Notes under the pieces: model-generated
Databases searched by the model: none
Told to the model about the DNA's origin: nothing
What the model saw: the letters and a program-made list of their open reading frames with translations, nothing else
Shown here: in pieces, positions 401 to 56,900 of the stretch
Layout of the letters: every line of letters starts with the position of its first letter
How positions within the stretch are numbered: the stretch's first letter is position 1
NCBI GenBank assembly: GCA_964019135.1
Contig: OZ025265.1
Span: forward strand, 20,869,143-20,933,142
Source of the DNA: Arenicola marina
Lineage: Eukaryota; Annelida; Polychaeta; Arenicolidae
DNA: 64,000 nucleotides
Reading direction: 5' to 3'
Made by a program: the position numbers and the translations under genes

Positions 401-582
401 TTTTTTCGTAAGGGTCGTGACGTCATCATTAGCTGTAATGCGCTACCCCTGGGACTGGTGCAGTGGTTGGCGTTCAATCGATGATTACTCCGTTATCAGA
501 TTGATAAAAATAAGTTCTTATGGTGATGAACTCCTTTTCTTTCTTATTTTCAATGAAAAATACTTCCTCTCCCTTTCTCCAA

Positions 583-5606: not shown

Positions 5607-5700
5607 ATGTTAAAAGCGGCTCGCCGATATGATACTATACGTTCTGCACTCTTGATTACTGTGTTTGTTATACTCTGCATACTTTATGCGGACTAGGCAG
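5607..5700 (+). pseudogene. Possible membrane-anchor exon, interrupted by a stop (copy 1)
   Basis: An ATG at 5607 opens a frame beginning MLKAARRYDTIRSALL, followed by a hydrophobic run (LLITVFVILCILY) typical of a signal anchor. The frame ends in CAG|GTATCA, a plausible splice donor. Copy 1 has TAG where copy 2 (53147-53240) has CAG, just before the donor, so this copy is closed. I found no convincing downstream exon on the plus strand before the oppositely oriented METTL24-like gene. It could be a gene remnant or chance. Family not recognised. Confidence 0.3.
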
Positions 5701-6402
5701 GTATCAAATATTGCATTTGGTGCCGTGACAAGGATACGGACATAGGATTATCGTTTGGTACTTTCCCTCAATGCAGATGGTCGCAGATCGATCCTGCGTC
5801 AGTTCAGACTGTGGACTATTCGGCGTCCATTTGAGCCTGATGCCTCAAATACTACACATATTGTCGTGAACACATGCTATCTACGGGGAAATCGCAGAAT
5901 CGAACTAATGTATGTTTCTTACGGACTAGCAATTTCAGTTGTGTGCATACTCACCTCAGCGGGTCTTTTTTTAAATCGGAAGCAGACCCATCTGACACCG
6001 AGGCGCGAGTCGGACTATGAAATTGTTCTTGAAAGAAACAATATCAGACACAGATGTTTGCATTGTGGCATTTAGACGTATCACACTTTAAGAGATTGGC
6101 GTCATTTTCGAAACAGGTTTAGGTGTGGGAGGGTGAGGGGGGGGGGAGGGGAGGGGGGAGGTAATGTTAAGCCCAATCTACTTGGTTACGCCGATGCCGC
6201 GTAGTTGAGTAAGAGTCATTCATAATCAATCAATTATAATCGCCAAATGATTAGCTAATCATGGGTCGGAAATCCCATCAAATGACCTCTCCTGATCTCC
6301 AAATTTTGCGCAGCATTCTATATATGTGCAGTTCACATTTCTTCATTTCAAACCTTGACACATCTTGACGCACACATTTACTTTGATGACGATGCACTAA
6401 GA

Positions 6403-9400
6403 TCAGGTATGCGAATGTGTGTCAGAGACAAAGTTGGTGTTCACGTAAAATATTTCATAGCAACATAGCGACTTTCCACCGATGGATACTGGTGTCAATT
6501 CCGCGAAGCGGCCACAACAATTATTGTTTGTATGGTATATGAACTTGCGGAATCCGACTCGCTCCAGGTCGTCGAAGCTCTGGTAGATCTCGGCGTAGTC
6601 CAGGAGTGACATGACCTCCTTGGCGGCCCGGAGACGCGGGGTGTGGACTTCAATGGCCAGCTGCTTGACCTGGTTAATGACGCCGGAGTCGATCATTTCT
6701 CTGAGGGCGGGAAACTCGGCGCCTTCCACGTCCACCTTCAAGTAGTCGATCGCCCTCTAAAGGGAGAAATAAAATATCGCAAATATGATAAGGTAAATGG
6801 CTACTTTTGCTATGAGTCTTCTCTTTCAGTATATTTATATTTGTATCTCTGAGTTCCCATTCATATTACCTATCATAGCAACACCAGGTAAACCTACTAG
6901 GTAACATATTGGCGTAATTATGATGCTAACAAGGGCTAATCTGGAACAATGAATGTGATACGAGAATGAGCTAACGATGAAACAAATCAAATTCTTGCAG
7001 TTTTTTTTGCGTTAGCTCACGTTTTGGTGCTTGAGCTGCTTGACGATCTCGCTGAGTGCAGCCATCTTCCATCCGTTCGGGTTCACCAATGAGGAGCCCC
7101 ATAAGCCCAGATTGTGGAAGTACATGTTGGGCTTGTGGAGGTGGTCCTCTAGATGTATGCTGGGAGAAAAGATCGGTTGTGTAAATATATTGCAGTACCT
7201 TACTTTAGGAGACAATAATTGACAGTTCGATAATTGAGCATTGGGGCGCGGAGTCCTCCAACCCGACCAATTAGAAAAATAAATAATAATAATTGGTAAG
7301 TAAATAACTTGAGGGTGGATGTGATATTTCGATGGACTATAGTCCGCCCCAACGGATCCCTCCCGCACATTGTGAAGTCCAATAATGTTATTGTGATGAA
7401 TCATTACAAATGATGTTTTGTTTACCTGGGATCGAACGAATGTACCTCGCAGCCAAACTCCGCATTAATTGCGTCATCAAAACTCCAGTCATTTGAAATA
7501 CTGCAAGACAACAAGAGTTTTGAAGCCATGATTTTTGAAACAGGGAAGTGTATACTAAGCGAACAATAGACCGCTGCATGTAATGCAGGTGATGCAATTC
7601 CACTTAGCAGTAAAAAACTATCTCATAAATTCAAGTAGTTATCTATCTTGCTAGAACATCGTAGCACATCGTCCCATTAAAAACTAAATAATTAATTAGA
7701 TATAATTGATAGCGATTTATGTCAAACAGGTACACAATTTCGCAATTCCGTTGTAAGCAGTTCACACTGACCCGAAAGAGTAGACGAGGCAATTGTTTTT
7801 GACTGGTGCCAACGGTTCGGCTAAACACGCTTCATAGCCCCCGTCACGCGCCCGACCAAACCTCTGAACCGTGGTGCACTGGTAGCTTTGCGAGGTCATT
7901 TTTCTGAGAAACAAAAATAACAATTATTTTGCCAGTAAAAACAAAACAAAATGTGTTGCCTGGACACAGGGGAAAGAAATAGGTTGTATATGGTAGGCAA
8001 TTATTATGAATATAGTGCGAAAGGTAAGTTTAGAAATATTGGGTGAAAAATTAAATTTAATGAAGCAGGCTGTATGATATCAATACCTGCTGTCAACTTG
8101 TGGCAAACGTTAATTAAGGCTGTAAATTATGGTAATGAAAGGTTTTGGATAGTTATACTTTCGCCAATAGTCGATTCAGGTAGCGACGACGCGTCGGAAA
8201 GGGGTAAAGGGGTCTAAATGTCTGAGGCGGACTGACAAACCAATGAGAAACTAATATTTAATAACAATAATAAACACAACTATATACTAGTAGCCTTCAT
8301 AATTAAAATACATTTTATTTCTTATAAACCTGGGCATTGTAGTCACCGAGGAGCCCGCGATCTGTGCATGTTGACGCCAGAGGAAACAATGAACAGCTCA
8401 GTTTAAACATGTGGCGCATAACGTTAAATATGATTTATTCAAGGTTTTATGTATGTCGGCTTATGGGTGCCAATTATGGGATTTCTCGTCCACGGCATGT
8501 CAATCGTTTTATATAGCCTGGCGGAAGGTGATACGCAGACTATTTGATTTACCTTATCGAACTCACTCCAAATTTCTTCCAATTATGTGTAATGACCTGG
8601 CTGTTGAATGGCAACTTCACAATAGATTTATAGTTTTCGTAAAAAGTATGCTGGTAAGTAAGAACCCTTGCACGAATTTCTGTGCACGGTTATCCTTAAA
8701 GGGACGCAAATCCAATGGAAGTAAGAGTGTGAATTTTATATGTGACAAATATCTTATCAGTAAGTACAATTTTAGTGCTTTATCAGCCAGCCGCTTAAGG
8801 AAGCACGTCTTAAATCATTGTGATCGTGCCACGGAAGGAGATGTAATGCGTGTCAGTGCCATAAAAGAATTTTTGCAATTAAGGGCACAAAATACAGGTT
8901 CTGACGACAATGAAAGCATAACTGACATCATCGAGTATTTATGCACTGAGTAGCACAGACCTAAACGTTCCTCTGAATTTCTTTCTGTTCTGTTTTTGTT
9001 ATTGTTATTTTTTTTGTTCTCTGAATTTCTATGTTTTGCTCCTTTTTTTTGTTCTCTGTGACTGCCATCTGTATTCCGTGTACGAGTAAAGATATATAAA
9101 GAAAGGAGGGTTATGAAGGTTGGTGGAAAGGTGAATATATGTCGACTCGCACACTTCGCAAATACACAAGAGCTGATGGAAAGGTGAATATATGTCGACT
9201 CGCACACTTCGCAAATACAGTTACAACACAAGAGCTTTAACTCGTCTGCCGCGCACAGGGCAAAGACTACTTTGTCTGAGACGTGTATCCGAAATAGCGG
9301 TCCCATTATATTTAATAAAGGGCCGAGAAAAGTTGGGCGCGTCCATATACATGTCCAAGTCACATGTTAAATGTATCCGATGAGCGCACTGCTTCCCTTA

Positions 9401-17600: not shown

Positions 17601-19199
17601 AAGAAAAAAATGCTTACTGGCCTTTTGTATTAACCGAAATATTGTGACAATATAACTCCTCAATCATGCCCTTTGTATTTAGCAAATATTTGATGTCAAA
17701 TAATGTGTACAATATGTATCTACATTTTTGTCTGAGATATATATTACACATAGGTATAGAACTAAGCATATGAAATGAAAATGTACCTTACATATGTTTT
17801 CATCTATGATTAATTCTTTCTTAATTTGTCAAATTTTATTTTATTTCTTATTTGATTAAAATTGAGTTTTTTGCACGTCAACAGTCAAGTGAACATATCA
17901 ATAAAACATTGCAAAGTATGTAAATATGAATTAGACAAGAGTACAAAGTACTTAGATGCAAATGTCAACTAAATCTATGAAAATGAAATGAAAAAGTTAA
18001 CATGCCGACTGTATGCATAAAACTATAGAACATTTAAATAGAATTGATGAATTTGCAAATGTCATGAATAATAGTTGCCATCACAGAATGTAGAAAGTTG
18101 ATGATTATTATAGCCTATTGATCTGTAATTTCGAGTTATATTTAAAATATCGTAAACTGATCTTGTCAAATAATGGAACACATTATAACATATATACTAT
18201 AGCAACCGAGCAGAAGTCTAAAAAAGTGATTATACGAGACCAATTTATTTATTACGACACACAGGATTTATTAAGAAAGCAACATGTCTTGGTGCTCGTG
18301 TCACAACTGTTCAAGGTGTCATCTACCACAATATGGACACGAACAAGTTAATAGTTCTTTATTTAAGTCCCACGAAAGACGAAATGCGACTCACCCCTTG
18401 CTCGCCGCGCCGGCCGCGCAGCTTGCCTGGTTCCACGTTTCATGTAGTAACTAGTATGACAGCCCTCTGCGCGCGGTATCTATTGTTACGCAGGGGGCGA
18501 ATGAGGCTGCGCACTGAACAAAAAGCACGTGTTCGTTTGTCTCCAAATTGCCAAGCCGGAAGTAGAACCCGCGAGAACTGACATGCCCTATTTTCTGATT
18601 TTCTCTATGTCTATTAATATAACTTAGGGACATTTTTTCCCTAAATATAGAGTGTATTGACGCAGTTTGACGGCGTTGTCTGGATGGACGCATCATTTCG
18701 AGTTAAACACAACGACTGGGAGGCTATCTACGATCGTCTCTTGGCCACAGATGGATTCTACATGCCGAGAAATCAGGGAATTCCTACATTCACCGTCACC
18801 CATCCGGGCATGTACGCTTACCTATCTACAGACCTGGAATACCAGAAACACAATATGAGCTACGGGGCAGCGAACGCGTTGATAATACACAACACGAAAT
18901 CGACGTATTGGAATATTCTCCACTGGTGGTATCTATGCAGTCTGGACCCAGCATGCATTGCGCCGACTGACCAGCGATTCTGCGGAAATTGGGGAAAATG
19001 TGCTGGCAAGGGCGGCAACATCACGTGCTGGGCTGGTTGCCATCGCTACGACCAATCAGCTATTAATATTTTGGCCTCCAACGCCATGCGGGATCAAGGG
19101 CATATCTTTGTATGCCCAGCATGGGAACAGAATACTCCCATTACAATACAGCGGCGTAATACTGCATGGTATGAAACGCGGTTCTGTCCGTCAAATTGA
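14635..19199 (+). CDS. DUF1647 family membrane protein, gene A (four exons)
   Basis: Exons: 14635-14772, about 15310-15588, 16355-16459 and 18651-19199. All junctions are phase 0 and the protein is about 356 residues. Exon 1 encodes a signal anchor (RTPLLALTACLLINGLLY). Exon 2 carries VFVTAASSNHFNES and ILYFDIGLTEEQRDT. Exon 3 carries WCDVQLRSF, YP, and LYTYAFKPLIIQ. Exon 4 carries QFDGVVWMDASFRV and CHRYDQSAINIL. This order matches what I know of Pfam DUF1647, a metazoan family of unknown function with a glycosyltransferase-like layout. The acceptor of exon 2 is ambiguous: the sequence just before ATGCCTCTGTCG lacks a good pyrimidine tract, unlike in B, C and D. The stop comes five residues earlier than in gene B (TGA where B has CGA). 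Intron 3 holds a 1.67-kb transposon relic. A Golgi or ER location is inferred. Confidence 0.85.
16918..18588. mobile_element. 1.67-kb DNA transposon relic with long degenerate inverted repeats
   Basis: The left end GGGCATGCAAGTGAATCTCG pairs with the reversed right end GGGCATGTCAGTTCTCGCGG. Further in, TTTTGGAGACAACAACG pairs with ATTTGGAGACAAACGAAC, then CACTGCGCAG and CTGTCATTCTAGT-type blocks also recur inverted, so the repeats extend at least 150 bp. The equivalent intron of gene B (25440-25960) lacks it. No transposase frame was found, so it is non-autonomous or decayed. The superfamily and target duplication could not be assigned. Confidence 0.7.
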
Positions 19200-25200: not shown

Positions 25201-26524
25201 CGGCAAAATGGAGTTAATTCTCCAATCGTTACAGTGCTAACATGACTTGTGATGGATAAATGCTTAAGGTCAATCTGCAATATAAGACATCTGCTAGTGG
25301 CGTCTGTTAACGAACAACATAATTTTGTTTTCAGATACGCACTTGGTGTGATGTGCAGCTTCGGTCATTTAAGAAGGAATTTTATCCAGAACACGTCAAC
25401 AATCTCTATACTTACGCATTCAAACCCCTAATTATTCAGGTAAGAAAGTCACAACAAGCAAGATAAAGCTAATAAACTGAGGCAAGTTTCCTTTTTTCTG
25501 AGCCATGTTCCGTATATCGAACACGTAGACCGATCACCATAACTATAGTGCGCAAAATATAGCTCACGTCTTATTCACGCCTAGCATTTAATATAATAAA
25601 AAACAGAATTTAGAATGGGAAATATCGTTGCCTCCACACTGGCCATTATTTTAGCTCGTCTATCATGAAGTGGAATTCTTGATTCATAACGTGCGGTTAC
25701 CGAAATCAGCAGAACCCCCAACTTTAATTCAAAAATGATTTCCAATGACGGTGAGCCGGATTGTACCAGATGCAGCTCATCGACCGTCATTTGTCCTATG
25801 TTTGTATCGAATTATAAACGTTATTAATCCGTGCTTTGGTTGATAACGATGAAAGTCGAAATGTCATGAGGTATGCGAAATGCTTTACATTGATTGCAAT
25901 TGTCCGATTATTTTCATTTCCATTATTATAACTTAGGGACTATTTTTGCCCTAAATACAGAGTGTATTGACGCAGTTTGACGGCGTTGTCTGGATGGACG
26001 CATCATTTCGAGTTAAACACAACGACTGGGAGGCTATCTACGATCGTCTCTTGGCCACAGATGGATTCTACATGCCGAAAAACCAGGGTATTCCTACATT
26101 CACTGTCACCCATCCGGGCATGTACGCTTACCTATCTACAGACCTGGAATACCAGAAACACAAGACGAGCTACGGAGCAGCGAACGCGTTGATAATACAC
26201 AACACGAAATCGACGTATTGGAATATTCTCCACTGGTGGTATCTGTGCAGTCTGGACCCAGCATGCATCGCGCCGACGGACCAGCGATTCTGCGGAAATT
26301 GGAGGAAATGTGCTGGCAAGGGCGGCAACATCACGTGCTGGGCTGGTTGCCATCGCTACGACCAATCAGCTATTAATATTTTGGCCTCCAACGCCATGCG
26401 TGATCAAGGGCATATCTTTGTATGCCCAGCATGGGAACAGAATACCCCCATTACAATACAGCGGCGTAATACTGAGTGGTATGAAACGCGGTTCTGTCCG
26501 TCAAATCGAACTAATGAAATGTAG
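22237..26524 (+). CDS. DUF1647 family membrane protein, gene B (four exons)
   Basis: Exons: 22237-22374, 24102-24386, 25335-25439 and 25961-26524. All junctions are phase 0 with standard GT and AG, giving about 363 residues. Exon 1 has a signal anchor (RIALLTLTACLLITGSLYHL) of the same 46-codon length as gene A. Exon 2 starts DTSVPLSYSPPPQSR and holds VFVTAASSNHFNES and LYFDIGLTEEQRD. Exon 3 is near identical to that of A. Exon 4 holds FDGVVWMDASFRV, WNILHWWYLCSLDPACI and CHRYDQSAINIL. The pyrimidine tract before exon 2 is good. Exon 4 and its 3' flank are very close to gene A, which suggests recent duplication or gene conversion. I see no disabling change. Product activity is unknown. Confidence 0.87.
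22880..22960 (-). mobile_element. Possible tRNA-derived SINE fragment
   Basis: On the minus strand GGTCAGGACCTAGCGACAG is followed by GGGTTGCGGGTTTAAACCCC. The second part resembles an RNA polymerase III B box and the spacing to the first part resembles an A box. No tail or target duplication was found. It lies in intron 1 of gene B. Confidence 0.35.
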
Positions 26525-30197: not shown

Positions 30198-32316
30198 ATG
30201 AGGGGGAATATTGGTCGCATAGCGTTGTTGGCCTTAACGGCTTGTCTGTTGACAGAAACCTGCTGTCAGCTCGCTATATCATGTAAGTTTACAGGACGCG
30301 GAACAGAGCTATGCTATGGGATACATTGGGACTGGTTTCCCGCTGGTAAGATATTATATGTCTTAGGTAGGCGACGGAGCGAAATTTGTTATAAAATATC
30401 ACGTTGAAAATGTTATGCCATTTATAATGAATCCAACGCATGCAACATCCACTGCTTGATTCGTTTCGCACTTGAATATTTATATTCATCTTCCACCTGC
30501 CTATGATTAAGTGGCTTCATTGATGATTAAAACAGACACTGCATACCCCTACATAACTTGATGCGACAATTACATCTATGGTCGTTTAGTGCAGATGCCC
30601 AAGTTGTTTAAATCTCGTAACTTTCGATACAGTTACGAAAACATGAGCCATTTATTTTTGGCAGCTAACCCAAATAGTGTATATGTTATTTTCCATGGGC
30701 AAGTAGAATCAATGCTATTGAGTAATGAACGAAGAACGGGCATTTAATAATCTTTATCTGTGCCTGTTTGTAGAAAGGTCACCATGCTTGGTTTTCGTTA
30801 TCGAAGATTGAGTGTAACAAGGAAATGACGCTGGCCCATATGCGAAGTTTCATTTTTTTATACATGTCTTAGAGTTCACTTCTTAAGTTTAAAAAGACTA
30901 AGACACATGAATCTGAACAAAGCAGAACCAAATTAAGATTTTAATTTTAATTATTGTTATGCAGAATAAGAAATATTTGCCACCACCCATATGAAGCGTT
31001 CAACTGACAGGCTATATCGTTAACGATGAACCTTAACAAAAAAGTTAATTTCTATATCTCGTTTGTTTTGCATTGCTTTTCAGGAGATATCTGTGCCTCT
31101 GTCGTACCGCCCTCCCAGTCCCTGTGTCACGACAATCGGTAAGACGATGAACGTCAGCACAACGCTACTGCGCAGACTCGGGATACCGCAGACGAGGTTT
31201 AAGACTCTGACGTCACAGAACGTCCGAGACCACGTGTTTGTGACCGCCGCCAGCAGTAACCACTTCAGCGAGAGTCGGGACTGCGTGGCCGGGATTCAGC
31301 AGTTCTTTCCGGGGTGGAAAACACTGTACTTCGACATTGGGCTCACAGGAGAACATCGCAACGAAGTTAAGATTTCATCATCGATTGGCACATTCTCGAA
31401 AGTTAATGATTGAATTATCAACTTAAATACATTTTGGGTTGGAATGTGTTGGTAAGATACTCCAAAGCAGCATGAAACGGTGCAACAACATACACACTTT
31501 GGCTTCGTACCCTTATATTTGACTTTTTCAGATAAAAGGCTGGTGCGACGTTGAGTTGCGCCTTCGAGGTCTTCCCACCGCACGTCAGCAATCGATACAC
31601 ATACGCCTTCAAATCATTATTACGGTAATTAAGTAAGGGACAAATGAACAAGGTTTGTCTAGATATGAGACAATTTGTCTTGCTATATTGAGAGTTTGTC
31701 AGCTTTAAATCAGGCTTAAATATCTTATGTTCTTTTACCACTTTAACAGAGTGTGATGGTGGAGTTTGACGGCATATACTGGGAGGATGCTTCAATTCGC
31801 ATAAAGCGCAGCGACTGGGTAACCGTCTACGAGCACATTATGGATACCAATGGATTTTACATGGCGAGAAATACGTGGATCCCTCTCTTTGCTGTCACCC
31901 ATCCGGGCATATATGAGTATCTACCCACGGACCTCGAATATCAGAGAGGATATGCGGGCGCTGGTGCCTCTTGGGTTCTGATTCTGCACAACACATGGAC
32001 AACTTATTTGAATATCTTGCATTGGTGGTTCTTGTGCGGTCTTGACCTAGCCTGCATTCCGCCTACTGAGCAGCGCTTATGCGGAGATTGGGGGAAGTGT
32101 GTTGAAGCAGGCTTTGGCGCCACGTGCCGGGCTGGTTGTCATCGCTACGACCAATCACAATTAAGTTTGCCACCACAATTAACATTGTGGTGTCATGCGG
32201 GATCAAGGGCACGTGTACTTACAACCGGGCGGGGAGAACTCCATCATTGTAGAGAGGAGACCGACAAATTGGTACACGCTTCGACATTGCACACTAGACA
32301 CCCTAAGATAACATAA
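30198..32316 (+). pseudogene. DUF1647 family gene C, decayed (four exon remnants)
   Basis: Exon remnants: 30198-30345, 31084-31365, 31532-31624 and 31750-32316. The order and splice signals are those of A and B, and exons 2 and 4 are closest to gene D (EISVPLS start, AEFDG/VEFDG, RYDQS). Exon 1 is 148 bp instead of 138, an insertion in the anchor region that shifts the frame. Exon 3 lacks 8 bp present in gene D after GTTGAGTTG and is scrambled near its end. Exon 4 loses its frame after CHRYDQS through a small inverted duplication. An AATAAA lies at 32373-32378. Three independent frame-breaking changes make a working DUF1647 protein very unlikely. Confidence 0.8.
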
Positions 32317-39234: not shown

Positions 39235-42200
39235 TTATTTTGAGGTGTCTTCGGTACAATGTCGAAGAGTGTACCAATTTGTTGGTCTCCTTTCCACAGT
39301 GATGGGCGGGTTCTCCCCGCCCGGTTGTAAGTACACGTGCCTTTGATCCCGCATGACGTTTGCCACCACAATGTTAATGGCCGATTGGTCGTAACGATGA
39401 CAACCAGCCCAGCACGTGGCACCAACGCCTGCTGCAACACACTTCCCCCAATCTCCGCATAATCGCTGCTCAGCAGGCGCAATGCATGCTGGGTCAAGAC
39501 CGCACAAGTACCACCAATGTAGGATATTCCAATAAGTTGTCTTTGTGTTGTGCAGAATCAGAGCCCCCGCAGCACCAGCGCCCGCATATCCTTTCTGATA
39601 GTCGAGATCGGTGGGTAGGTATTCATATATGTCCGGATGGGTCACAGCAAAGAGAGGGATCCACGTATTTCTGGCCATGTAAAATCCATTCGTATCCATA
39701 ACGTTCTCGTAGACGGTTTCCCATTCGTTGTGCATTATACGAATTGAAGAATCCACCCAGAATATGCCGTCAAACTCCGCCATCACACTCTGTTAGAATG
39801 TTAAAAGAACTTAATATATTTAAGCCTGATTTAAGGCGAACTTTCAATTAATTCCTTTAATATTGAGAGGATTGTTTTGCAAGCTTCAGAAAGGTCCCAA
39901 TTATGTAATATGTGTAAACTCCTAAAGACAACAATGCCATATCAAGACGAATCTTGTTGTTTTCCCCTGCTTAATTACCTTAATGATGATGGGTTTGAAG
40001 GCGCATGTATATCGATTGCTGACGTGCGGTGGGTAGTCCTCGAAGGCGAACGCCCTCAACTCAACGTCGCACCAGTCTTTTATCTGAAAAAGTCAAATAG
40101 AGGAGTACGGAACCTGCGCGTGTTACACCTTGTCACGACGCGTTGGAATATCTTGCCAATGCATTCCAACCCAAAATGTAGTTGATAATTCAATCATTAA
40201 TTTCGAGAATGTGTCAAGCGATGATTAAGGCTTGATTATTATACTTAAATATATTAATATTAATTCAAATATCGCGTGTCGATTCCGTGACAAGTTGCTA
40301 AGTGAGAGCCCGGAAAGGAAAATTCAGACACGCACACTTTCAGTTGCAGCGTCCTTCCGACCGGCCTGAGCCATCATGGGAATATAAGCGGCAGTCGTTC
40401 AAACGATCAATTTAGTTTCTTTGCGATCTGATATCAAACTATGTTTAACCTCGTTGCGTTGTTCCTCCGTCAGCCCGATGTCAAAGTAGAGTATTTGCCG
40501 ACCGGAAAAGAACTGCTGAATCCCGGCCACGCAGTCCCGACTCTCGTTGAAGTTGTTACTGCTGGCGGCGGTCACAAACACGTGGTCTCGGATGTTCTGT
40601 GACGTCAGCGTCTTGAACCTCGTCGGGGGAATCCCGAGTCTGCGCAGTAGCGTTGTGCTGACGTTCATCGGCTTCCCGATTGTCGTGACGCGGGACTGGG
40701 GAGGGGGTCGGTACGAGAGCGGCACCGATATCTCCTGAACGGAAATAAAAAACCAACGAGATTTCGAAATTAACTTCATGATATAGCCAACGAATTGGTT
40801 CATTTTGGTTCAAGTGGTAGACGTGGGTAATAACGTGGGTTATGCTGATACAATGGTTTCCCCCGAACATGGCAGCACGACAGTGCGTCTAATCTCAATC
40901 AAGGGTTTTGTGTACTATAATCCCACCGAGGCCCCACCTTGGAAAATTACAGCTTTTGTTGAAGACTAGCTCCTACGTCCCAAGGGACTTTCAAAACCAT
41001 AAATGCCAATAAGTTGCTCCATCAAAATAGAATACCCGATAATTTCCTTATGGGAAATTATTTGCCGTTATCTTTTAACAATTAATCAGAGCCGTTCATT
41101 TGACGTTTCGCAATGTAAACGTGAATTCGCATTTGAAGCTGGTGCTCTGTACGCACGAGGCGGGCAGTCATGCCTTTTTTCTGTCACAAACTCCGTTACA
41201 AGGCATCGTAGGTTAAAACAAAATTGATGATACTATGAATTCAACACTACAAACACCTACTTGGTGCTTCCTTTATACCAAATGCCTATTCGTTTGAATA
41301 GCTACATACACCCTTCACCTGTCTATATTTACCGATTAAACTGGAACCTACGTCACTTGGCGTCAAAATCGGTTTGAATCGTTCAGAGTTAATGCCCAAG
41401 TTGGTTCAGATGTCCTGACTAAAGCAAAACGCCACACTATTTTCGGAAACGAACAAGATTGCTCATTTTCTCTGACCTTTAAGCGTCAGGTATTTCCATA
41501 GGCACTGCCTGTTTTTCAATTGTGAAATAAAACCCGAAATGGGGTCAGATGGTTAAGTAATCGACCTATTATTATTTATTAGGCTAATTAGTTACTATAG
41601 TGCTGCAAAGACCAACAGATAGTGGCTTTACCTCAATCGATAGCGAATCGCGGCCACTCGCACGATTAACGTCTGGCGCGTCCTGTACGGTGGATTCTCC
41701 ATTGTAGCGTTCTCGGCTGTCAGTCGATGTGGTGCTATTCTGTAAGTTCACTGAAACATGTACTGTGAGTTAAAGTTACTCATGCAGCAATATGTTCCCT
41801 GTAAAACTTCAAAATAGTTTGAATGAAAATGATGTATACATGTAGGTTTTTCTGTGTATGTGCAAACACCTGTATGCAATAAATACCAAGGCAAACCACG
41901 TTTTAAGGCCAAACGGTTGCATTTCTCGTGGAAAGTGTGGCATCCTTGTGGCCTCATCAAAAGGGTCTTTTTGTGTACTCATCAACATGTCTTCTTGTAT
42001 ACTCATCAGCATGTCTTCTTGTTTACTCATCAATATATCTTCTTTTGGCCTCATCAAATTGGCCTTCTTGTGAACTCATAAACACGTCTTCTTGTGTACC
42101 CATCAAAATGGCTTATTGTGTACTCATCAAAATGTCCTCTTGTGTACTCATCAAAATGTGTTTTTTAGTGTATTAACAAGAATATCTTCTTGTGTACTCA

Positions 42201-45200
42201 TCAATGCGTCTTCTTGTGATCTCATCAAGATGGCTTCTTGTGTACTCATCAAAATGGCTTCTTATGTACTCATCGAAATGGCTTCTTGTGTACTCAACAT
42301 GCCTTCTTGTATACTCAACATGTCTTCCTGCATACTCATCATCATGACTTCTTGTTTACTCATCAATATATCTTCTTGTGGCCTCACCAACATGTCTTCT
42401 TGTGTACTCATCAACATGTCTTCTTGTGTACTCATCAAAATTTCTTCTTGTGTACTCATCAAAATGGCTTCTTGTGTACTCATCAAATTGGCCTTCTTGT
42501 GTTCTCATCTACATGTCTTCTTGTATACTCATCAGCATGTCTTCTTGTTTACTCATCAATATATCTTCTTGTGGCCTCACCAACATGTCTTCTTGTATAC
42601 TCATCAGCACGTCTTCTTGTGTACTCATCAAAATGGCTTCTTGTGTACTCATCAAAATGTCTTCTTGTGTACCCATCAAAATGGCTTATTGTGTACTCAT
42701 CAAAATGTCTTCTTGTGTAATCATCAAAATGTGTTTTTTAGTGTATTAATAAGAAGATCTTCTTGTGTACTCATCAATGTTTCTTCTTCTGTACTCATCA
42801 AAATGGCTTCTTGTGTACTCATCAAAATGGCTTCTTATGTACTCATCAAAATGGCTTCTTGTGTACTCATCAACATGTCTTCTTGTGTACTCAACATGCC
42901 TTCTTGTATACTCAACATGTCTTTTTGTATACTCATCATCATGACTTCTTGTGGCCTCATCAAAATATCTACGTGTGTACTCATCAACATGTCTTTACTT
43001 TAATATATACCATAACACACTATTGTGTGCAGAGCTAGTATTCACACAGCCAGATAATGATAATATGTCCGAGACATTGTATATCCGAGACCCGTTCTAT
43101 ATAGCGGTCATGATACTCTCGGCACTCTCTCAGCAGATGGAGATCAGGTCACACATCACCTGCACCTCACCTCTGCCCCAAGTAACTGCCAACCTCGCGT
43201 CGGCCCTAACGGTGCTGGCGTCACCAAGGTGGTTCGAGGGTCGTTGAATTCGGGGTTTTCGATGCAGAATTCAAAGATATGTATTCATTTCAGTTATCGT
43301 AAAATCACAGCGGGTTAGTTAGTTCGCTGAGCATATTTCCAAATCAACACAGAGCCAGAGTTTAAAGCCTTTCTATATAGCGGTCATGATACTCCCGGCA
43401 CTCTCTCAGCAGATGGAGATCAGGTCACACATCACCTGCACCTCACCTCTGCCCCAAGTAACTGCCAACCTCGCGTCGGCCCTAACGGTGCTGGCCTCAC
43501 CAAGGTGGTTCGAGGGTCTTGAATTCGGGGTTTTCGATGCAGAATTTAAAGATATGTATTCATTTCAGTTATCGTAAAATCACAGCGGGTTAGTTAGTTC
43601 GCCAAAAATATTTCCAAATAACACAGAGCCAGAGTTTAAAGCCTTTCACGCCATTGACCTCGATCGAACTAGCATTTGGTAGTAACATGGCCTCAACCCG
43701 AATACAGTTTATACTCATCGTATGAACTCATATGAACTCATCGTATGAAATCAGACCGGAAGGTAAACTTTATGAAGTATTTGGAACAAAAGGGCCCATT
43801 CCATTGAGTCTAGGGCTTTTTCAAAATCCTTAAAATAAAAGTATACTCTCTATTTTTTACCTTGCTAAGTACTCTATGACATCGTGAATTAATTGAATAT
43901 TGTTACCAATAAATTAATTTTTAATAACCCTCGTATTTTCGAATAGTCATGCGTGACCAAATTGGGTATTATCTGTCTATGAGCCAACTGGCATCTACTC
44001 GGGCATCCCTCTGCCTCAGGCCAAACTGTATGTGATTGTCATTGGCGTTAGCTGTGTTACAGCCGAACCAAGTTTGAACAACATGAATTCGACAGGGAAG
44101 TTCAACTTTCTCCAAATGTGCCTAATAATGGACCAATCAAACTGTGATTATCTGGTCTTGGCGTCATTGTTTTGTATAGCAGGCAAACATACTAAATCCT
44201 TCCTAGAATCAACAAAAATATGTAGGTGGCTGCCTCTCTCGATTTTGAGACACTTATTGTTCGCTCGACTTCGATATTTGACCTCGAATCGATAGCAAAG
44301 GGACACACTTTTTGTAAATCGCTGGTGTTTCGATAGAAATTAGAGAGTACGAATGGACTCGGTTAGACCTCGAAACGCCTCAACCATCAGTGTCGGCTTG
44401 ACATCGACTCGATAGTTGACAGCGATTTGGCATTAAAATCCGTCCAGTCCGAAGATCTGAATCCGATATAAGCATGCAATGATACTTCGCAAACTAATAG
44501 TGTGCACAGTACACATTAAAAAGAAATCAATTCGGCATGATACATGATTTGAAACGTCATAACGTATTTAAATGAGACAATTTAATTCATAGGCAGAAAA
44601 TGCTAGGCCAGCTTTGAGAGCTAAAAGTAGTCTAATCGGTAGTCATCCACGATCAATTTACACAAACCTTACCTTCATTCTCACGCACCATGCATAAAGT
44701 AACAGTGAATTCAAAACTTTACTTTGTTGTGGCATCTTACATTTTAAAAACGCCGACAAAGAATTGTAGCACTATTCAGTACAACGGGCTGGAGCACGCG
44801 GAAACTGTCGTAGTTAGGTCGCCTTGCAATTAAGTCACATACTTGGAGTCGTAAATTATCTATATATTTCTCTGCATTCTAATTGTCTTTAATATAGAGA
44901 TATTAAAAAGGAATAGCAAACGTCAAAAGACGGTTAATTTAATAATATGGGCACGTATTTTATAGTAAATCCTACAGCAAATTACCAACGTTATTCGAGG
45001 TCGAATCGATATCAATTGACGTCGATGGCAAAAATCTTATGGCGACGTTGGATTCGGCTGCACTTTGTAATGCTACACCGCCAAAATTAATGAAACGACA
45101 GCAATTCAATTTTAGTAACAATGACATTTTCATGTTCTAGAGTCAGTTGATCCACGTCACAGGCATGAAGCATGCCCGCGCTCCAATTGCTGATTATGTT

Positions 45201-48583: not shown

Positions 48584-51474
48584 TACTCGATATTACAAAA
48601 TTGCGTCATCAATGTTGGAACAACGTTAACACAACCAGGCTTTGAGAGGAATTATCGATATTCAAGGGTGACCAGATTTCACAAGTGTCGTACCCACAAT
48701 ATTTATGGTTAACCGATAGTGACATTACAATCGTAAGAACTTTTTACTAAACCGAAGCAAATGATAACGACCATGACAATTACCCTTTGAAACAGCAAAG
48801 CATATTACTTAGTATGCAAATGAATGTATATATTCACTGTTTGAAAAAATTAACATTACCAGAAAGTAATTGCCAGTCTTAAAGACCGCATGAGAACCAA
48901 ATTAAAATATCAGTAAGAGGAGATATGATTTATTCATTGTCTAAGATACCTGAACAAACATTTCCAAATTTAAATTGTGTGCCACAAGCCTGTAAACACT
49001 ACATTTGAGTATTCTAGAACTCATGAATATTCAAATATGATGTCATGTACTGGACGCAAGAAAAATTGGTGCCAAAGGCTGGGTCCAGAAATATGTAAAC
49101 TGGAGCAGATTACGTCCGTCCCTAGTTATTGATCTAGTTACAGACTTTGCAACTTCATCCAGTACAAGACTTCATACTGAGGCCAATGGTTCCAAGAATC
49201 CAGCAAGAATGCTTGAAATGTTGATATGTTAGTTTGTATTAATTGTCAAAATCAGAAACATAAATGCTCTGGTGTTCCCGTATATTTGAAAGCAGATCTT
49301 TTCAGAGCTATCAAGTGGCATCAATACTCTCATGGGGCATTTAAAGAGTGATCAGAATTCTCAATAATGTGGTTTCCAAAAGATAATGACAGTAGAATTA
49401 AGCTAATTGCCGTAAAAGTGATATACAATTAAAATTCAACAAGCTCTTTACTCAGAGTGCTGTCAGTATAAATTCCGTTGACGTTTAAGTGTGTGAACGA
49501 TCTGACGACACTAGCTGAAACGAATTTTCACAGTGCTGATATTAAAATCAATATGAATATTTCCAGTTAACCAAAAAGATAAGAAAGATATAGAATAGTG
49601 CTCTGCCAGGCCGTTTTGCACAGCACATGTGCGCTTGCAGGTATGACATGATACTGCTTACATTCTGTAATGATCATGTATAACTACTAGCTACCTCAGC
49701 GGCAAGGTTCTGTGACCTTCGATGAATACAAGTATAACGATCATTGTGCGTATCAATCTACTTGAATTAAAAAAAAGTGTGGCAAAATACACGCCGTTTG
49801 TTAAAACAGTACATAAGATTATTAGGTCCCCCCTCAGTTCGCAGCACACAACCCGGCGACCATTGGGCATTTTGAAGTAATATATAACTGATAGGCCTCG
49901 ATTTAATTACAACTATATTGCAAACTTGGCCTATTAAACACCTTTGATAATATCTAGATCAAGTGCGAGCTCTTTAAAATTGTATTTTCATTGACGTTTC
50001 TAATGTTTTTGTAACGCTGCATATTTATCAGACGAATAGAATATCGACCTCAAAATCGAATACTCAATGACGGTGAACAGTGAGGTGAGGTAGAAAAACA
50101 TGGGCCAATATAACAACAGCACGAGCTAACGGGGTCCTAGTGACTTCATGTGCCCGACGTCAAGCTGCAGCAGCCCGCCACTTTTTAAAACAACAAGAGA
50201 GACATAGGCTGCAAATTACTGACAGAAATTGTTCCTACATCGTCCTGATCTCCACGTCGTCTTTCACCCCCGGAGATTCAAACCGCAACCCATGGCATCA
50301 ACCATCGCCCAAACCATCGCTGGCTTATGGTATTTAATTCCCCGTGTACTTATCATTGTTAACAGGGCAAAAGGAATGATTCGCTACAACACTGTCTAGC
50401 TTCATAAACTGAGCAGGCATACTAAAGTTTTCACTTTTTTCTCGTCTTTTGCCACCGGTTCCAACTCTTCAACGACCGTATTAAGCGAGTGATGGCCAGT
50501 CCAACTCGCAAGAACTGCCAGTTGTTTCCCCCGTTGACTCGAGTGACTCGGTTATGTCCAAGCCATATATTTAGGCCGTTAAAGTAAATGGGAATGCAAC
50601 AACAACAATTCAAACCCAAGCACGTTTATTATCGTATTTTCAAGGGATTCAATATGCAATTCAATGCCACATGCAATACCATTTGCAAACTCCTCGCTTT
50701 CATACGTTTCATTTCATAAGTGCGTTTTACATTGATGATCAATTTAATGATGCAATTATAATGGTTTTATATGAGTGAGAGCATTTTTCAATATATATAT
50801 TTGGGATACAATATTCACTTTGCCCTAACGTTTTGTAAAATGAAATCCTCACTTATTTTACCATTGCATATTAGCAAATCTTTCAAGAACCATCAATCAC
50901 TTCAGTGAAAGACTTGAAGAAGAGGCATTTCTGAGGTTTACCCCTATTTATTTGTACATATGTGTTACCCCATATAAATTTCTCTGTAATATCTCGCCCA
51001 CACTTTACCTTTAAACACTTCTATAATCTAAATATATTATAATACACACATTTCCTTATAAAATTCTGGTATTTTATCGATCTCAACAAAGTTTCTGGCA
51101 TCGATACAATTGACTAACAATGAACGTTTAGTGTATACACACAGATCGTATTGCAAGATTGTATGCAATAAATAGTTTGACATATTGTTAAGCCACTTTT
51201 TTGGACCAAATTGAGGACATTAAAGATGTTTTACCTTGTAACATATAACAATACATTTATTTTGAATATAATTGATATCCACATAGAATCTATTCAGATA
51301 ATGTGTCCAAGCCGTTTTCAATATTTGAAGGGATTGAGCAGATTTCAACAAATGCTGTATGAGGAATTTTAAGAATATTACTCGAATAATGTTCTACATC
51401 AGATCACTTACATATGCATGCGATAAATATAATTGCACCCCTAGACCTATTTATTCTTTCGTATATAAATATTA

Positions 51475-52062
51475 TTACGAGTTGGTGGGCATGTTAACTA
51501 GTACAATAGCGTTACATCTGAAGGCCTCTAAAATGCCGTATTCTGACCCAAACCGCCCTGCTGCCAATGCAATCGACAATCGTTGCCATGGCGACGCTGC
51601 ATAGAACAATGAAACATGACGTCACGCACAAAAGAATTGTAGTTATAGCTTTAAATAGCCCGCTTTCATGACTAGTTGCCTAGTTGCACATGCTATGTTT
51701 CTTGGCAACATATATATGGTATAAAAAGGCGACTGGCCAACTATATGTGGAAAGGCTTGCGATTTGCGGACAGTCAGTCCCAAAATGCTTTACTTTTGTC
51801 ATTGCATGCGGAAATGAAACCAAAAAAGCAGAGACAAGTCAACGCCTTAAATTTAAATTCAACTCGTAATAATAGTAATAGCGCGAGTTTTGCTTGGCGT
51901 TAGGCATTTTATTGGCCCTTCATCAAGCTGTAGCAGCCCTTCATTTTCATTATCCGCCCTCGGCCTTGCGGCCTCGGGCCGATAATGAAAATTGGCGGGC
52001 TGCTACAGCTTGATGTCGGGCCAATAAAATTGCCTAACGCCCCGCAAACTCGCGCTATTGTC
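51475..52062. mobile_element. 588-bp insertion unique to copy 2, with ATATTA target duplication
   Basis: Copy 1 reads straight through (TATAAATATTAATCAACAAT), while copy 2 has ATATTA at 51469-51474 and again at 52063-52068 around the insert. The insert has two parts: a roughly 400-bp segment bounded by a 14-bp inverted repeat (ATTATTACGAGTTG at 51471-51484, CAACTCGTAATAAT at 51860-51873), and a 183-bp palindrome. Inside the first part are an RFX X-box-like GTTGCCATGGCGAC (51582-51595), a perfect CRE TGACGTCA (51617-51624) and TATAAAAA (51720-51727). No transposase or recognised protein; family not assigned. Confidence 0.85.
51877..52059. repeat. 183-bp long imperfect palindrome (foldback hairpin)
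   Basis: The left arm starts AATAGCGCGAGTTTTGC and the right arm, reversed, starts AATAGCGCGAGTTTGCG. The arms continue with GGCGTTAGGCA, TTTTATTGGCCC, CATCAAGCTGTAGCAGCCC and TTTTCATTATC on both sides. The turn is a GC-rich CCTCGGCCTTGCGGCCTCGG. The arms are about 80 bp each with only scattered mismatches. Confidence 0.92.
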
Positions 52063-53146
52063 ATATTAATCAACAATACGAACAGACAAAGTCAGACAAC
52101 TACCACATATTTAATCATTATGCTTATGATTAATGAAAAGCCTTGATTACGGCGGTCGGCTAATACCTCATTCCCACTTCACAAAGAATTATTTTCCATA
52201 TTCCCAGTTCATGGTGAAATGAAAATCCCAGTCCCGAGGAACGCAAATAGCCCTTGCACCCCCCCCCCCCCACCACCCCACTGCAAGCCACCCGTTACAT
52301 GGGCCTGATAAGCAAAACACCCTAAATATGGCACCTTAATAGCAGACAATGACACCATTGTATCAGGTCAACGACTTGCACCATGTGCGTTGCGTACGCT
52401 TTAGCAAGGTGGCAACACCACTTAGAGCCCCCAAGTTCAAAGTCAAGTTCAAAGTCCATGTGGGAGACATTCTGTTGCGCAGCGGCCCGCGCCTTGCTAA
52501 CCTTGTTGCATACACGGCGGGTATCTCATTATGTCGGATGGCGACACGTTTGTTTGTAAACATGCGTTGGTTGGTTTGTTCTTTTCATTTCCACCGCCTC
52601 CACGAATGTCTAGTTTGAGCTGTTACTCTATGCAAATGGTCAAAATCATCTCACAGAAGATAAAGAACGTGTTGAAAACTTGAAAATGGATGCATGACCA
52701 ATTTGAAGCCGATCACTGGCAATGTGGTGGTAGTATAGACAACAAAGCTGTCAAGTTTTGGGGCCACAGCTGTTCTGAGTGTCCAAGTACACGCATAATG
52801 CGAAGGCACCCGCTGAATAACTAAATAATTCTATTAGGGCAACTATGTGCCATACAATTTACAATAGTCGGTATCGACCTGCCTGGCTTGATCCAGGTCG
52901 AGGGATGAAGGGGGCGCAACAATCCTACTTTTGGGAAATAGCAATAGACTGTGAAGCGGAAGGCAGTGATTTTATTTTACAGGTTTATTAGCGTGCGCGC
53001 ACCCGTCGCCATTGTGAATATCTGGCTGATGCAAATGGGACATCAACGAACTGAGAAAGTATGGGTGTTTATTGCAGACACACGCACTCACCCACCCTCT
53101 TTTTTGTTTCCAAACGCACAGGAACAGCGCCCATGCATACCGACGC

Positions 53147-53240
53147 ATGTTAAAAGCGGCTCGCCGATATGATACTATACGTTCTGCACTCTTGATTACT
53201 GTGTTTGTTATACTCTGCATACTTTATGCGGACCAGGCAG
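53147..53240 (+). CDS. Possible membrane-anchor exon, open in copy 2
   Basis: Same frame as 5607-5700 (MLKAARRYDTIRSALL, then a hydrophobic run) but with CAG instead of TAG, so it stays open through the candidate donor CAG|GTATCA and, unspliced, to 53374. A longer frame starting at 53072 includes it. No downstream exon or family was recognised, so coding status is doubtful. Confidence 0.3.
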
Positions 53241-53943
53241 GTATCAAATATTGCATTTGGTGCCGTGACAAGAATACGGACATAGGATTATCGTTTGGTA
53301 TTTTCCCTCAATGCAGATGGTCGCAGATCGATCCTGCGTCAGTTCAGACTGTGGACTATTCGGCGTCTATTTGAGCCTGATGCCTCAAATACTACACATA
53401 TTGTCGTGAACGCATGCTATCTACGGGGAAATCGCAGAATCGAACTAATGTATGTTTCTTACGGACTAGCAATTTCAGTTGTGTGCATACTCACCTCAGC
53501 GGGTCTTTTTTTAAATCGGAAGCAGACCCATCTGACACCGAGGCGCGAGCCGGACTATGAAATTGTTCTTGAAAGAAACAATATCAGACACAGATGTTTG
53601 CATTGTGGCATTTAGACGTATCACACTTTAAGAGATTGGCGTCATTTTCGAAACAGGTTTAGGTGTGGGAGGGTGAGGGGGGGGGGGGGGAGGGGGGGGA
53701 GGTAATGTTAAGCCCAATCTACTTGGTTACGCCGATGCCGCGTAGTTGAGTAAGAGTCATTCATAATCAATCAATTATAATCGCCAAATGATTAGCTAAT
53801 CATGGGTCGGAAATCCCATCAAATGACCTCTCCTGATCTCCAAATTTTGCGCAGCATTCTATATATGTGCAGTTCACATTTCTTCATTTCAAACCTTGAC
53901 ACATCTTGACGCACACATTTACTTTGATAACGATGCACTAAGA

Positions 53944-56900
53944 TCAGGTATGCAAATGTGTGTCAGAGACAAAGTTGGTGTTCACGTAAAATATTTCATA
54001 GCAACATAGCGACTTTCCACCGATGGATACTGGTGTCAATTCCGCGAAGCGGCCACAACAATTATTGTTTGTATGGTATATGAACTTGCGGAATCCGACT
54101 CGCTCCAGGTCGTCGAAGCTCTGGTAGATCTCGGCGTAGTCCAGGAGTGACATGACCTCCTTGGGGCCCAGAAGACGCGGGGTGTGGACTTCAATGGCCA
54201 GCTGCTTGACCTGGTTAATGACGCCGGAGTCGATCATTTCTCTGAGGGCGGGAAACTCGGCGCCTTCCACGTCCACCTTCAAGTAGTCGATCGCCCTCTA
54301 AAGGGAGAAATAAAATATCGCAAATATGATAAGGTAAATGGCTACTATTGCTATGAGTCTTCTCTTTCAGTATATTTATATTTGTATCCCTGAGTTCCCA
54401 TTCATATTACCTATCATAGCAACACCAGGTAAACCTACTAGGTAATATATTGGCGTAATTATGATGCTAACAAGGGCTAATCTGGAACAATGAATGTGAT
54501 ACGAGAATGAGGTATAGGACTCCATATGTGATCCCACGAACTAACGATGAAACAAATCAAATTCTTGCAGTTTTTTTTGCGTTAGCTCACGTTTTGGTGC
54601 TTGAGCTGCTTGACGATCTCGCTGAGTGCAGCCATCTTCCATCCGTTCGGGTTCACCAATGAGGAGCCCCATAAGCCCAGATTGTGGAAGTACATGTTGG
54701 GCTTGTGGAGGTGGTCCTCTAGATGTATGCTGGGAGAAAAGATTGGTTTTGTAAATATATTGCAGTACCTTACTTTAGGAGACAGCAATTGACAGTTCGA
54801 TAATTGAGCATTGGGGCGCGGAGTGCTCCAACCCGACCATTTAGAAAAGTAAATAATAATGATTGGTAAGTAAAAACTTGAGGGTGGATGTGATATTTCG
54901 ATGGACAATAGCCGCCCCAACGGATCCCTCCCGCACACATGTGAAGTCGAATAATGTTATTGTGATTGATCATTGGAAATGATGCTTTGTTTACCTGGGA
55001 TCGAATGAATGTACCTCGCAGCCAAACTCCGCATTAATTGCGTCGTCAAAACTCCAGTCATTTGAAATACTGCAAGACAACGAGAGTTTTTAAGCTATAA
55101 TTTTAAAATCAGGGAAGTGTATAATAAGCGAACAATGGACCGCTGCATGCAATGCAAGTGATGCAATTCCATGTAGCAGTAAAACACATCTCATAAATTC
55201 AAGTAGTTATCTATCTTGCTAGAACTTCGTGGCACATCATCCCATTAAAAACAAAATAATTAATTGGATAGGATATCGATTTATTTCAAACAGGTACACA
55301 ATTTTGCAACTGCGTTGTAAGCAGTTCACACTGACCCGAAAGAGTAGACGAGGCAATTGTTTCTGACTGGTGCCAACGGTTCGTCTAAACACACTTCATA
55401 GCCCCCGTCACGCGCCCGACCAAACCTCTGAACCGTGGTGCACTGGTAGCTTTGCGAGGTCATTTTTCTGAGAAACAAAAATAACAACAATTATTTTGCC
55501 AGTAAAAACAAAACAAAATGTGTTGCCTGGACACAGGGGAAAGAAATAGGTGGTATATGGTAGGCAATTTATTATGAATATAGTGCAAAAAGTAAGTTTA
55601 GAAATATTGGGTGAAAAATGAAATTTAATGAAGCAGGCTGTATGATATCAATACCTGCTGTCAACTTGTGGCAAACGTTAATTAAGGCTGTAAATTATGG
55701 TAATGAAAGGTTTTGGATAGTTATACTTTCGCCAATAGTCGATTCAGGTAGCGACGACGCGTCGGAAAGGGGTAAAGGGGTCTAAATGCCTGAGCTGGAC
55801 TGACAAACCAATGAGAAACTAATATTTAATAACAATAATAAACACAACTATATACTAGTAGCCTTCATAATTAAAATACATTTCATTTCTTATAAACCTG
55901 GGCATTGTAGTCACTGAGGAGCCCGCGATCTGTGCATGTTGACGCCAGAGGAAACAATGAACAGCTCAGTTTAAACATGTGGCGCATAACGTTAAATATG
56001 ATTTATTCAAGGTTTTATGTATGTCGGCTTATGGGTGCCAATTATGGGATTTCTCGTCCACGGCATGTCAATCGTTTTATATAGCCTGGCGGAAGGTGAT
56101 ACGCAGACTATTTGATTTACCTTATCGAACTCACTCTAAATTTCTTCCAATTATGTGTAATGACCTGGCTGTTGAAGTGCAACTTCACAATAGATTTATA
56201 GTTTTCGTAAAAAGTATGCTGGTAAGTAAGAACCCTTGCACGAATTTCTGTGCACGGTTATCCTTAAAGGGAAGCAAATCCAATGGAAGTAAGAGTGTGA
56301 ATTTTATATGTGACAAATATCTTATCAGTAAGTACAATTTTAGTGCTTTATCAGCCAGCCGCTTAAGGAAGCACGTCTTAAATCATTGTGATCGTGCCAC
56401 GGAAGGAGATTTAATGTGTGTCAGTGCCATAAAAGAATTTTTGCAATTAAGGGCACAAAATACAGGTTCTGACGACAATGAAAGCATAACTGACATCATC
56501 GAGTATTTATGCACTGAGTAGCACAGACCTAAACGTTCCTCTGAATTTCTTTCTGTTCTGTTTTTGTTGTTGTTGTTTTTTTTGTTCTCTGAATTTCTAT
56601 GTTTTGCTCCTTTTTTTTGTTCTCTGTGACTGCCATCTGTACTCCGTGTACGAATAAAGATATATAAAGAAAGGAGGGCTATGAAGGTTGGTGGAAAGGT
56701 GAATATATGTCGACTCGCACACTTCGCAAATACACAAGAGCTTTAACTCGTCTGCCGCGCACAGGGCAAAGACTACTTTGTCTGAGACGTGTCCCCGAAA
56801 TAGCGGTCCCATTATATTTAATAAAGGGCCGAGAAAAGTTGGGCGCGTTCATATACATGTCCAAGTCACATGTTAAATGTATCCGATGAGCGCACTGCTT

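What the first reader, a model, noticed from the sequence alone, without database searches (positions are those of the whole stretch)
51475..52062. Recent 588-bp insertion combining an enhancer/TATA-bearing segment with a giant hairpin
It is present only in duplication copy 2, with a clean empty site in copy 1 and a 6-bp ATATTA duplication. One part is bounded by a 14-bp inverted repeat and carries an RFX X-box-like site, a perfect CRE and a TATA box; the other is a 183-bp foldback. I cannot place this in a known superfamily. It may be a composite or nested element, or a foldback-type element that brings its own promoter.
Basis: seen in the sequence. Interest (0 to 1): 0.72.

Follow-up and report, generated by a model that had tools for sequence, protein, structure and literature searches.

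The report
Rolling-circle-like transposon with giant hairpin
A 591-base piece of DNA here is one copy of a young, very numerous jumping element that cannot move by itself; its ends look like those of rolling-circle transposons, but it carries an unusually huge hairpin at one end.

Summary
The insertion is real, recent and precise, but it is neither unique nor, as far as tested, two elements that move apart. In the window's own genome (867 Mb, unnamed) the 40 best matches are all full-length at 99-100%; short probes hit 867 (5') and 1636 (3') places. The 6-bp ATATTA duplication is not the rule: only ATT is constant on both sides. So the element is 51474-52064 (591 bp) in a strict ATT site, as a 3-bp duplication or an insertion without duplication. 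It has no clear terminal inverted repeats. A 14-bp repeat at the 5' end recurs inverted inside, just before a 183-bp terminal hairpin. That is the plan of non-autonomous Helentron/Helitron2 elements (HINE/DINE-1), whose 3' palindromes are more than tenfold smaller. Apparently intact Helentron genes exist in this genome, but none was found with these ends, so membership rests on anatomy. The CRE, X-box and TATA matches exist, but 23 other 8-mers of the same segment are better conserved. The internal inverted repeat lies in one of only two long fully conserved runs. Verdict: a new variant of a known kind; the enhancer reading is unsupported.

The parts
51474..52064 (+). The element, 591 bp (head-to-tail repeat unit 594 bp with ATT)
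   Evidence: Boundaries from 22 copies and three readable empty sites; tandem period 594
51471..51473 (.). Left ATT: target copy, or first 3 bp of the element
   Evidence: 284 exact 5' ends with ATT against 10 with another first base, genome-wide
52065..52067 (.). Right ATT: target
   Evidence: ATT in 21 of 22 copies; the next base is never T in 22
51471..51484 (+). 5' asymmetric inverted repeat ATTATTACGAGTTG
   Evidence: 0 of 1000 shuffles
51860..51873 (-). Internal 3' copy of the asymmetric inverted repeat, just before the hairpin
   Evidence: lies in one of only two runs of 12 bp or more fully conserved in older copies
51877..52059 (+). 183-bp terminal hairpin
   Evidence: folds in older copies too; internally shortened in 11 of 46 places with exact inner-repeat and 3' probes
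51503..51511 (+). Second short inverted repeat ACAATAGCG, 5' side
   Evidence: 9 bp; 13 of 1000 shuffles reach it: weak
52053..52061 (-). Second short inverted repeat, 3' side
51582..51595 (+). X-box-like site
   Evidence: Seen in sequence; older copies mostly read CATAG where this one reads CATGG; not exceptional in conservation
51617..51624 (+). CRE TGACGTCA
   Evidence: Intact in 22 of 22 young copies and 7 of 8 older ones; above the segment average, but 23 other 8-mers do better
51720..51727 (+). TATA box
   Evidence: TATAAAA in 19 of 22 young copies; the 8-mer intact in 5 of 7 older ones
51736..51749 (+). Conserved run GCCAACTATATGTG, role unknown
   Evidence: Fully conserved in the 7 older copies covering it
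50113..50185 (-). Ancient relative of the 3' end (one hairpin arm only)
   Evidence: 75.7% over 74 bp, E 2e-7; same in duplication copy 1 at 3167-3239

Best explanation
A copy of a young, high-copy non-autonomous DNA element built like a Helentron/Helitron2 derivative (HINE/DINE-1 type). Its 3' terminal stem-loop has grown into a 183-bp foldback. Inferred working: a Rep-helicase encoded elsewhere in this genome recognises the asymmetric inverted repeats, starts rolling-circle copying at the 5' end, stops at the hairpin-bearing 3' end, and inserts the strand or circle into an ATT site. Multimers and self-insertions give the head-to-tail and nested copies. Shown: one family, recent burst, strict ATT target, asymmetric repeat plus terminal hairpin, tandem junctions, apparently intact Helentron genes in the genome. 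Not shown: the enzyme, the intermediate, and any role for the promoter motifs.
For: Asymmetric 14-bp inverted repeat and terminal hairpin, the plan described for HINEs and Helitron2. The internal repeat lies in one of two fully conserved runs of 12 bp or more in older copies. No clear terminal inverted repeat (7 of 15 ungapped matches, shuffle p 0.057; 10 of 20, p 0.015). Strict ATT site; of the 10 non-A left variants, the three whose right side I could see keep ATT on the right. Head-to-tail copies sharing one ATT: 3 of 67 exact 5' ends; clustering far above random. The genome holds 53 Helitron_like_N matches, 24 of them in open frames over 2,000 aa; the one element traced joins OTU, Rep, Pif1 and endonuclease domains. 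No Y1_Tnp (PF01797) match.
Against: No autonomous element with these ends was found: 0 matches to the 14-mer at up to 2 mismatches in 165,590 bases of Helitron-related loci (looser probes gave two 1-mismatch 11-mers at one homologous place and one 2-mismatch 15-mer, not at known ends). Most true ends of those Helentrons were not reached. The hairpin (183 bp) and the distance from internal repeat to end (191 bp) far exceed published values (5-10 bp palindrome, 38-60 bp). A 3-bp ATT duplication cannot be told from insertion without duplication. Tandems can also form by insertion at an older copy's end: L013 is a young copy against an older one. The terminal resemblance of 10 in 20 bases (p 0.015) is weak but not nil.
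Confidence: 0.58

Rival explanations
1. A MITE moved by cut-and-paste with a 3-bp ATT duplication (PIF/Harbinger or Pangu-like), which happens to hold a foldback near one end.
For: ATT on both sides in nearly all copies is formally a 3-bp duplication; Pangu uses ANT sites; the ends share ATnAC, and 10 of 20 terminal bases match (p 0.015).
Against: No 11-40 bp terminal inverted repeat as in Pangu; the best inverted repeat pairs the 5' end with an internal site 191 bp from the 3' end; of the 10 non-A left variants, the three testable ones are not mirrored on the right. No search for DDE transposases was made.
Confidence: 0.22
2. A composite: a TIR element (51471-51873) fused, perhaps long ago, to a separate foldback.
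For: The 14-bp repeat does bound the first segment, and the inner copy includes AAT, the same ATT read on the other strand, as an insertion end might. 26 of 84 exact 3' ends had neither exact upstream probe within reach.
Against: The 40 best matches are full-length; 42 of 67 exact 5' ends have an exact 3' end downstream and 46 of 78 exact inner-repeat probes have an exact 3' end within 250 bp. The six odd 5' ends that were read gave broken, deleted or full copies and no first segment ending cleanly at the inner repeat.
Confidence: 0.08
3. Another single-strand mechanism, with an unknown HUH or other enzyme, not Helentron.
For: Strict short target, hairpin end and no Helentron with matching ends.
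Against: PF01797 (Y1_Tnp) has no match in the genome; Helitron-type Rep is present. Other HUH families were not searched.
Confidence: 0.12

Closest known systems
HINE / DINE-1 (non-autonomous Helentrons), Thomas et al. 2014, PMC4067079 (passages seen)
   Same: 12-15 bp subterminal inverted repeats, the 3' one internal and followed by a palindrome; no coding; T-containing target without clear duplication; high copy number
   Different: Published palindrome 5-10 bp and internal repeat 38-60 bp from the end in mite HINEs; here 183 bp and 191 bp. Target is a strict ATT, not a T run. No partner with shared ends found.
Helitron2 / FoHeli of Fusarium, PMC5148889 (passages seen)
   Same: Asymmetric terminal inverted repeat; FoHeli1/2 end in ATATTTT and insert at a fixed A/T site; tandem and self-insertions discussed
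   Different: FoHelis encode their enzyme; ends differ in sequence; small hairpins
Pangu / PIF-Harbinger MITEs, PMC4482050 (passages seen)
   Same: 3-bp A/T-rich target, possible 3-bp duplication
   Different: No terminal inverted repeat of the required kind
Foldback (FB/TU/Tetris-type) elements (Tetris and Tm1 seen as titles in the listing; FB and TU recalled)
   Same: Large foldback DNA
   Different: Here the foldback is one end of an asymmetric element, not a pair of long terminal arms

Membership tests
Helentron/HINE (HLE2) | Subterminal (asymmetric) inverted repeats of about 11-15 bp | tested here: met
   14 of 14 bp, 0 of 1000 shuffles
Helentron/HINE (HLE2) | Palindrome between the 3' repeat and the 3' end | tested here: met
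   Hairpin 51877-52059, but far larger than published
Helentron/HINE (HLE2) | 3' repeat about 38-60 bp from the 3' end | tested here: not met
   191 bp here; by arithmetic (start-to-start probe distance minus 4), 29-183 bp in the 11 shortened of 46 places. The range is that given for mite HINEs.
Helentron/HINE (HLE2) | Insertion in T-rich/TT site without duplication | tested here: inconclusive
   Target ATT nearly always; a 3-bp duplication cannot be excluded
Helentron/HINE (HLE2) | Autonomous Rep-helicase partner sharing the ends | tested here: inconclusive
   Rep genes present; no shared ends in 165,590 bases examined, most element ends not reached
PIF/Harbinger-Pangu MITE | Terminal inverted repeats of 11-40 bp | tested here: not met
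   7 of 15 and 10 of 20 ungapped matches
PIF/Harbinger-Pangu MITE | 3-bp target duplication | tested here: inconclusive
   ATT both sides, indistinguishable from none
IS200/IS605-type (Y1 HUH) | Y1_Tnp transposase in the genome | tested here: not met
   PF01797: 0 matches; rings in 5 of 14 control genomes
Replitron | Its own HUH protein; short direct terminal repeats | not tested
   PF01797 need not detect replitron proteins; features known here only from a review passage
Canonical Helitron (Helitron1) | 5'-TC and 3'-CTRR ends | tested here: not met
   Ends ATTACGAG / GTCAT
Any known RNA family (ribozyme etc.) | Rfam match at gathering score | tested here: not met
   0 matches in the whole window

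The most novel reading that the evidence does not exclude
A rolling-circle-type element whose terminator became a 183-bp foldback through inverted duplication of its own 3' end. It keeps that foldback through mobilisation although copies tend to lose parts of it, perhaps because transcription from the internal TATA region makes a long-hairpin RNA, or because the hairpin strengthens termination.
Probability: 0.2. Interest if true: 0.6.

Novelty: new variant of a known kind. Interest (0 to 1): 0.36.

Why it matters
It is a very young, still nearly uniform family (22 young copies differ from their majority sequence by 0-4 of 588 bases) with readable empty sites, so insertion rules and hairpin decay can be studied directly. 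If the Helentron assignment holds, it shows that the 3' terminator can be very large. The hairpin is shortened in about a quarter of the places measured (11 of 46), a natural record of palindrome loss. For annotation, it warns that a duplication inferred from one insertion can be overcalled, and that motif-bearing segments need not be regulatory.

Tried and rejected
Rejected: 6-bp duplication; functional promoter as the explanation. Disfavoured: two independent elements. A 5.9-kb place with the same ends, thought a possible autonomous copy, is an ordinary copy broken by a foreign transposon of about 5.3 kb with no ORF of 90 aa or more. Six of the 13 exact 5' ends on C1-C3 that lacked both exact partners were read (L074-L079): L075 is a full older copy; L078 is an older copy followed to position 516 of the 588-base probe, where the fetched stretch ended; L077 is an older copy that has lost the inner repeat and hairpin; L076 is a deletion derivative with one hairpin arm; L074 is broken by another repeat; L079 keeps 45 bp in a duplicated locus. 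No longer relative emerged; seven of the 13, and the places of about 1.5-2.9 kb, were not read. Helentron ends: one 3' border was approached, the 5' border not. Viral contigs: 0 exact hits to a 19-mer of the 5' end; phages: no match. Hairpin-arm covariation was looked at by eye on one alignment and not scored. The 22 flanked copies are 22 of the 40 best matches (20 fetched regions, one holding two copies, plus the window copy); the other 18 were not read. First-look ranking may favour nested copies, so 5 of 21 loci lying in or against another copy or fragment of the family (L013, L014, L018, L020, L022) is not an unbiased rate. A rough multiple alignment gave the CRE 63 of 64 identical against 0.80 for the whole first segment, X-box 0.87 and TATA 0.78; its average is lowered by truncated pieces, so (pairwise) was preferred.

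Changed on checking: odds of the composite rival 0.06 to 0.08 and of the best explanation 0.60 to 0.58. The inner-repeat probe lies in the first segment and so does not test the hairpin, 26 of 84 3' ends stay unexplained, and the inner repeat carries AAT.

Full report
The window lies in G000, an unnamed eukaryotic genome of 867,369,267 bases in 762 contigs, at C20:20869143-20933142. It contains a large direct duplication. Around the finding, 2106-4525 and 4520-6970 match 49054-51474 and 52063-54511 at 96.7% and 98.8%. Copy 1 reads AAATATTAATC where copy 2 carries the insertion, so the insertion most simply followed the duplication.

The unit is a family. Of 97 match rows (40 of 2951 first-look candidates scored), the 40 best cover the probe at 99-100%, 39 over 1-588 and one over 1-587; the other 57 are partial neighbouring copies or the hairpin matching itself. 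Best-first ranking favours full-length copies, so I also used short probes: 24 bases of the 5' end, 867 matches (up to 2 mismatches, reversed control 0); 22 bases ending at the inner repeat, 1127 (up to 2, control 1); 21 bases of the 3' end, 1636 (up to 3, control 6). Among exact matches on contigs C1-C3 (67, 78 and 84), 47 of 67 5' ends have the exact inner-repeat probe downstream within 7 kb, 42 the exact 3' end, 35 both and 13 neither; 35 of 67 have the 3' end at 300-700 bp. Of 84 3' ends, 46 have the inner-repeat probe within 250 bp upstream, and 26 have neither upstream probe in reach. Those 26 were not read. Six of the 13 5' ends were and are old, broken or deleted copies. So the two parts are usually together; an excess of 3' ends remains unexplained.

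The boundary needs revision. In 22 copies from 21 loci the left flank ends TTA in 22 and ATTA in 21, the right starts ATA in 22 and ATATT in 21, and the next base is never T. Three empty sites can be read, the window's and those of older family members holding a younger copy (L018, L022), and each shows a single ATT. The element is therefore ATTACGAG...GTCAT, 51474-52064, between two ATTs. Genome-wide, 284 exact 5' ends have ATT and 10 another first base; four 3' ends have a non-A there, and none of these is the same copy as any of the 10. Three of the 10 can be checked on the right (C1:43237790, C3:3797123, C10:20925264) and have ATT there. So the site is strict, and nothing shows a true duplication of another triplet.

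Anatomy: ATTATTACGAGTTG opens the element and recurs inverted at 51860-51873, not at the 3' end. Three bases on comes the 183-bp hairpin (51877-52059), which ends 5 bases before the 3' terminus. Terminal inverted repeats in the ordinary sense are at best weak (7 of 15, p 0.057; 10 of 20, p 0.015).

Age and constraint: 22 young copies differ from their majority base by 0-4 of 588 positions. Nine pieces of eight older copies (80-97% identity) were compared with the window element. Only two runs of 12 bp or more are fully conserved where at least six cover them: element positions 262-275 and 387-400 (51475 being 1), the latter being the internal inverted repeat less its first base plus one base. 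CRE is intact in 7 of 8, the X-box half in 6 of 8, TATA in 5 of 7; 23 of 363 8-mers are intact in all. The CRE is above average in both analyses (63 of 64 bases) but not exceptional, so the promoter reading has no special conservation support. The hairpin still folds in older copies. It is shortened by more than 5 bp in 11 of 46 places with exact inner-repeat and 3' probes, whereas the 5' segment keeps 377 plus or minus 2 in 34 of 43.

Arrangement: three of 67 exact 5' ends directly follow another copy's 3' end with one shared ATT. Neighbouring 3' ends within 1 kb number 6 pairs among 84, against 0.04 in random placement (maximum 2 in 2000 runs); 5' ends 2 among 67 against 0.03. At least one such pair joins a young to an older copy (L013), so sequential insertion contributes and rolling-circle dimers are not proven.

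Mobiliser: the genome has 53 Helitron_like_N matches, all over the curated cut-off, 24 of them in open frames over 2,000 aa. The one traced carries OTU, Rep, Pif1 and exo/endonuclease domains, that is, a Helentron; a second lineage (L064) showed no endonuclease in the stretch read. PF01797, the Y1 transposase of IS605-type elements, has no match. None of 165,590 bases of Helitron-related loci has the 14-base repeat at up to 2 mismatches; looser probes gave two 1-mismatch 11-mers at one homologous place and one 2-mismatch 15-mer.

Comparison: published mite HINEs have 12-15 bp subterminal inverted repeats, the 3' one 38-60 bp from the end, a 5-10 bp palindrome, T-rich target and no target modification (PMC4067079, passages). 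Oyster HINEs are alike (PMC7492417, passages). Helitron2-type elements of Fusarium have asymmetric terminal inverted repeats, some ending ATATTTT and inserting at a fixed A/T site (PMC5148889, passages). The present element follows that plan but exceeds it in hairpin size and spacing. Pangu MITEs use ANT sites but have 11-40 bp terminal repeats (PMC4482050, passages), which are missing here. Replitrons, by a secondary account, have short direct terminal repeats and 2-8 bp duplications and are known from green algae and land plants (PMC10741241, passages). I saw no description of this family, or of a Helentron with so large a hairpin, in the listings, which cover only open-licence papers; no repeat database was available.

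Conclusion: a real, young, abundant non-autonomous element, most likely of Helentron/Helitron2 type with an enlarged terminal hairpin (0.58). Cut-and-paste with a 3-bp duplication is the main rival (0.22).

Noticed in passing
G000, e.g. L055/L059/L060 (C2:23206410-23219900): 53 Rep-type (Helitron_like_N) matches, 24 in open frames over 2,000 aa; the one traced is a Helentron with OTU and endonuclease domains. They look recently active.
   Followed up: partly
window 50113-50185 and 3167-3239: Ancient relative of the element's 3' end, with only one hairpin arm, in both duplication copies.
   Followed up: partly
contigs C1-C3: 26 of 84 exact 3' ends have neither the exact 5' probe nor the exact inner-repeat probe upstream: mutated or broken copies, or 3' ends that occur alone.
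   Followed up: no
window as a whole; C20:20.96, 21.00, 21.04 and 21.107 Mb: Window 50060-51300 has further copies of 96-100% along the next 175 kb or so of C20: a local segmental duplication cluster.
   Followed up: no
window 41938-42996: Dense, degenerate short-period tandem array, about 77-88% between copies.
   Followed up: no
window 1-400: Stretch rich in overlapping inverted and direct repeats.
   Followed up: no
L073 about 318-5592: A foreign transposon of about 5.3 kb with inverted ends, without an ORF of 90 aa or more, nested in a copy of the element.
   Followed up: partly
L014 2045-2290 (minus strand): An old copy whose hairpin arm carries a unit of about 21 bp repeated in tandem.
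   Followed up: no
window 18651-19199, 25955-26524, 31747-32316, 39235-39792: Four related open frames of 182-189 aa; the first one, the only one scanned, has no Pfam match.
   Followed up: no
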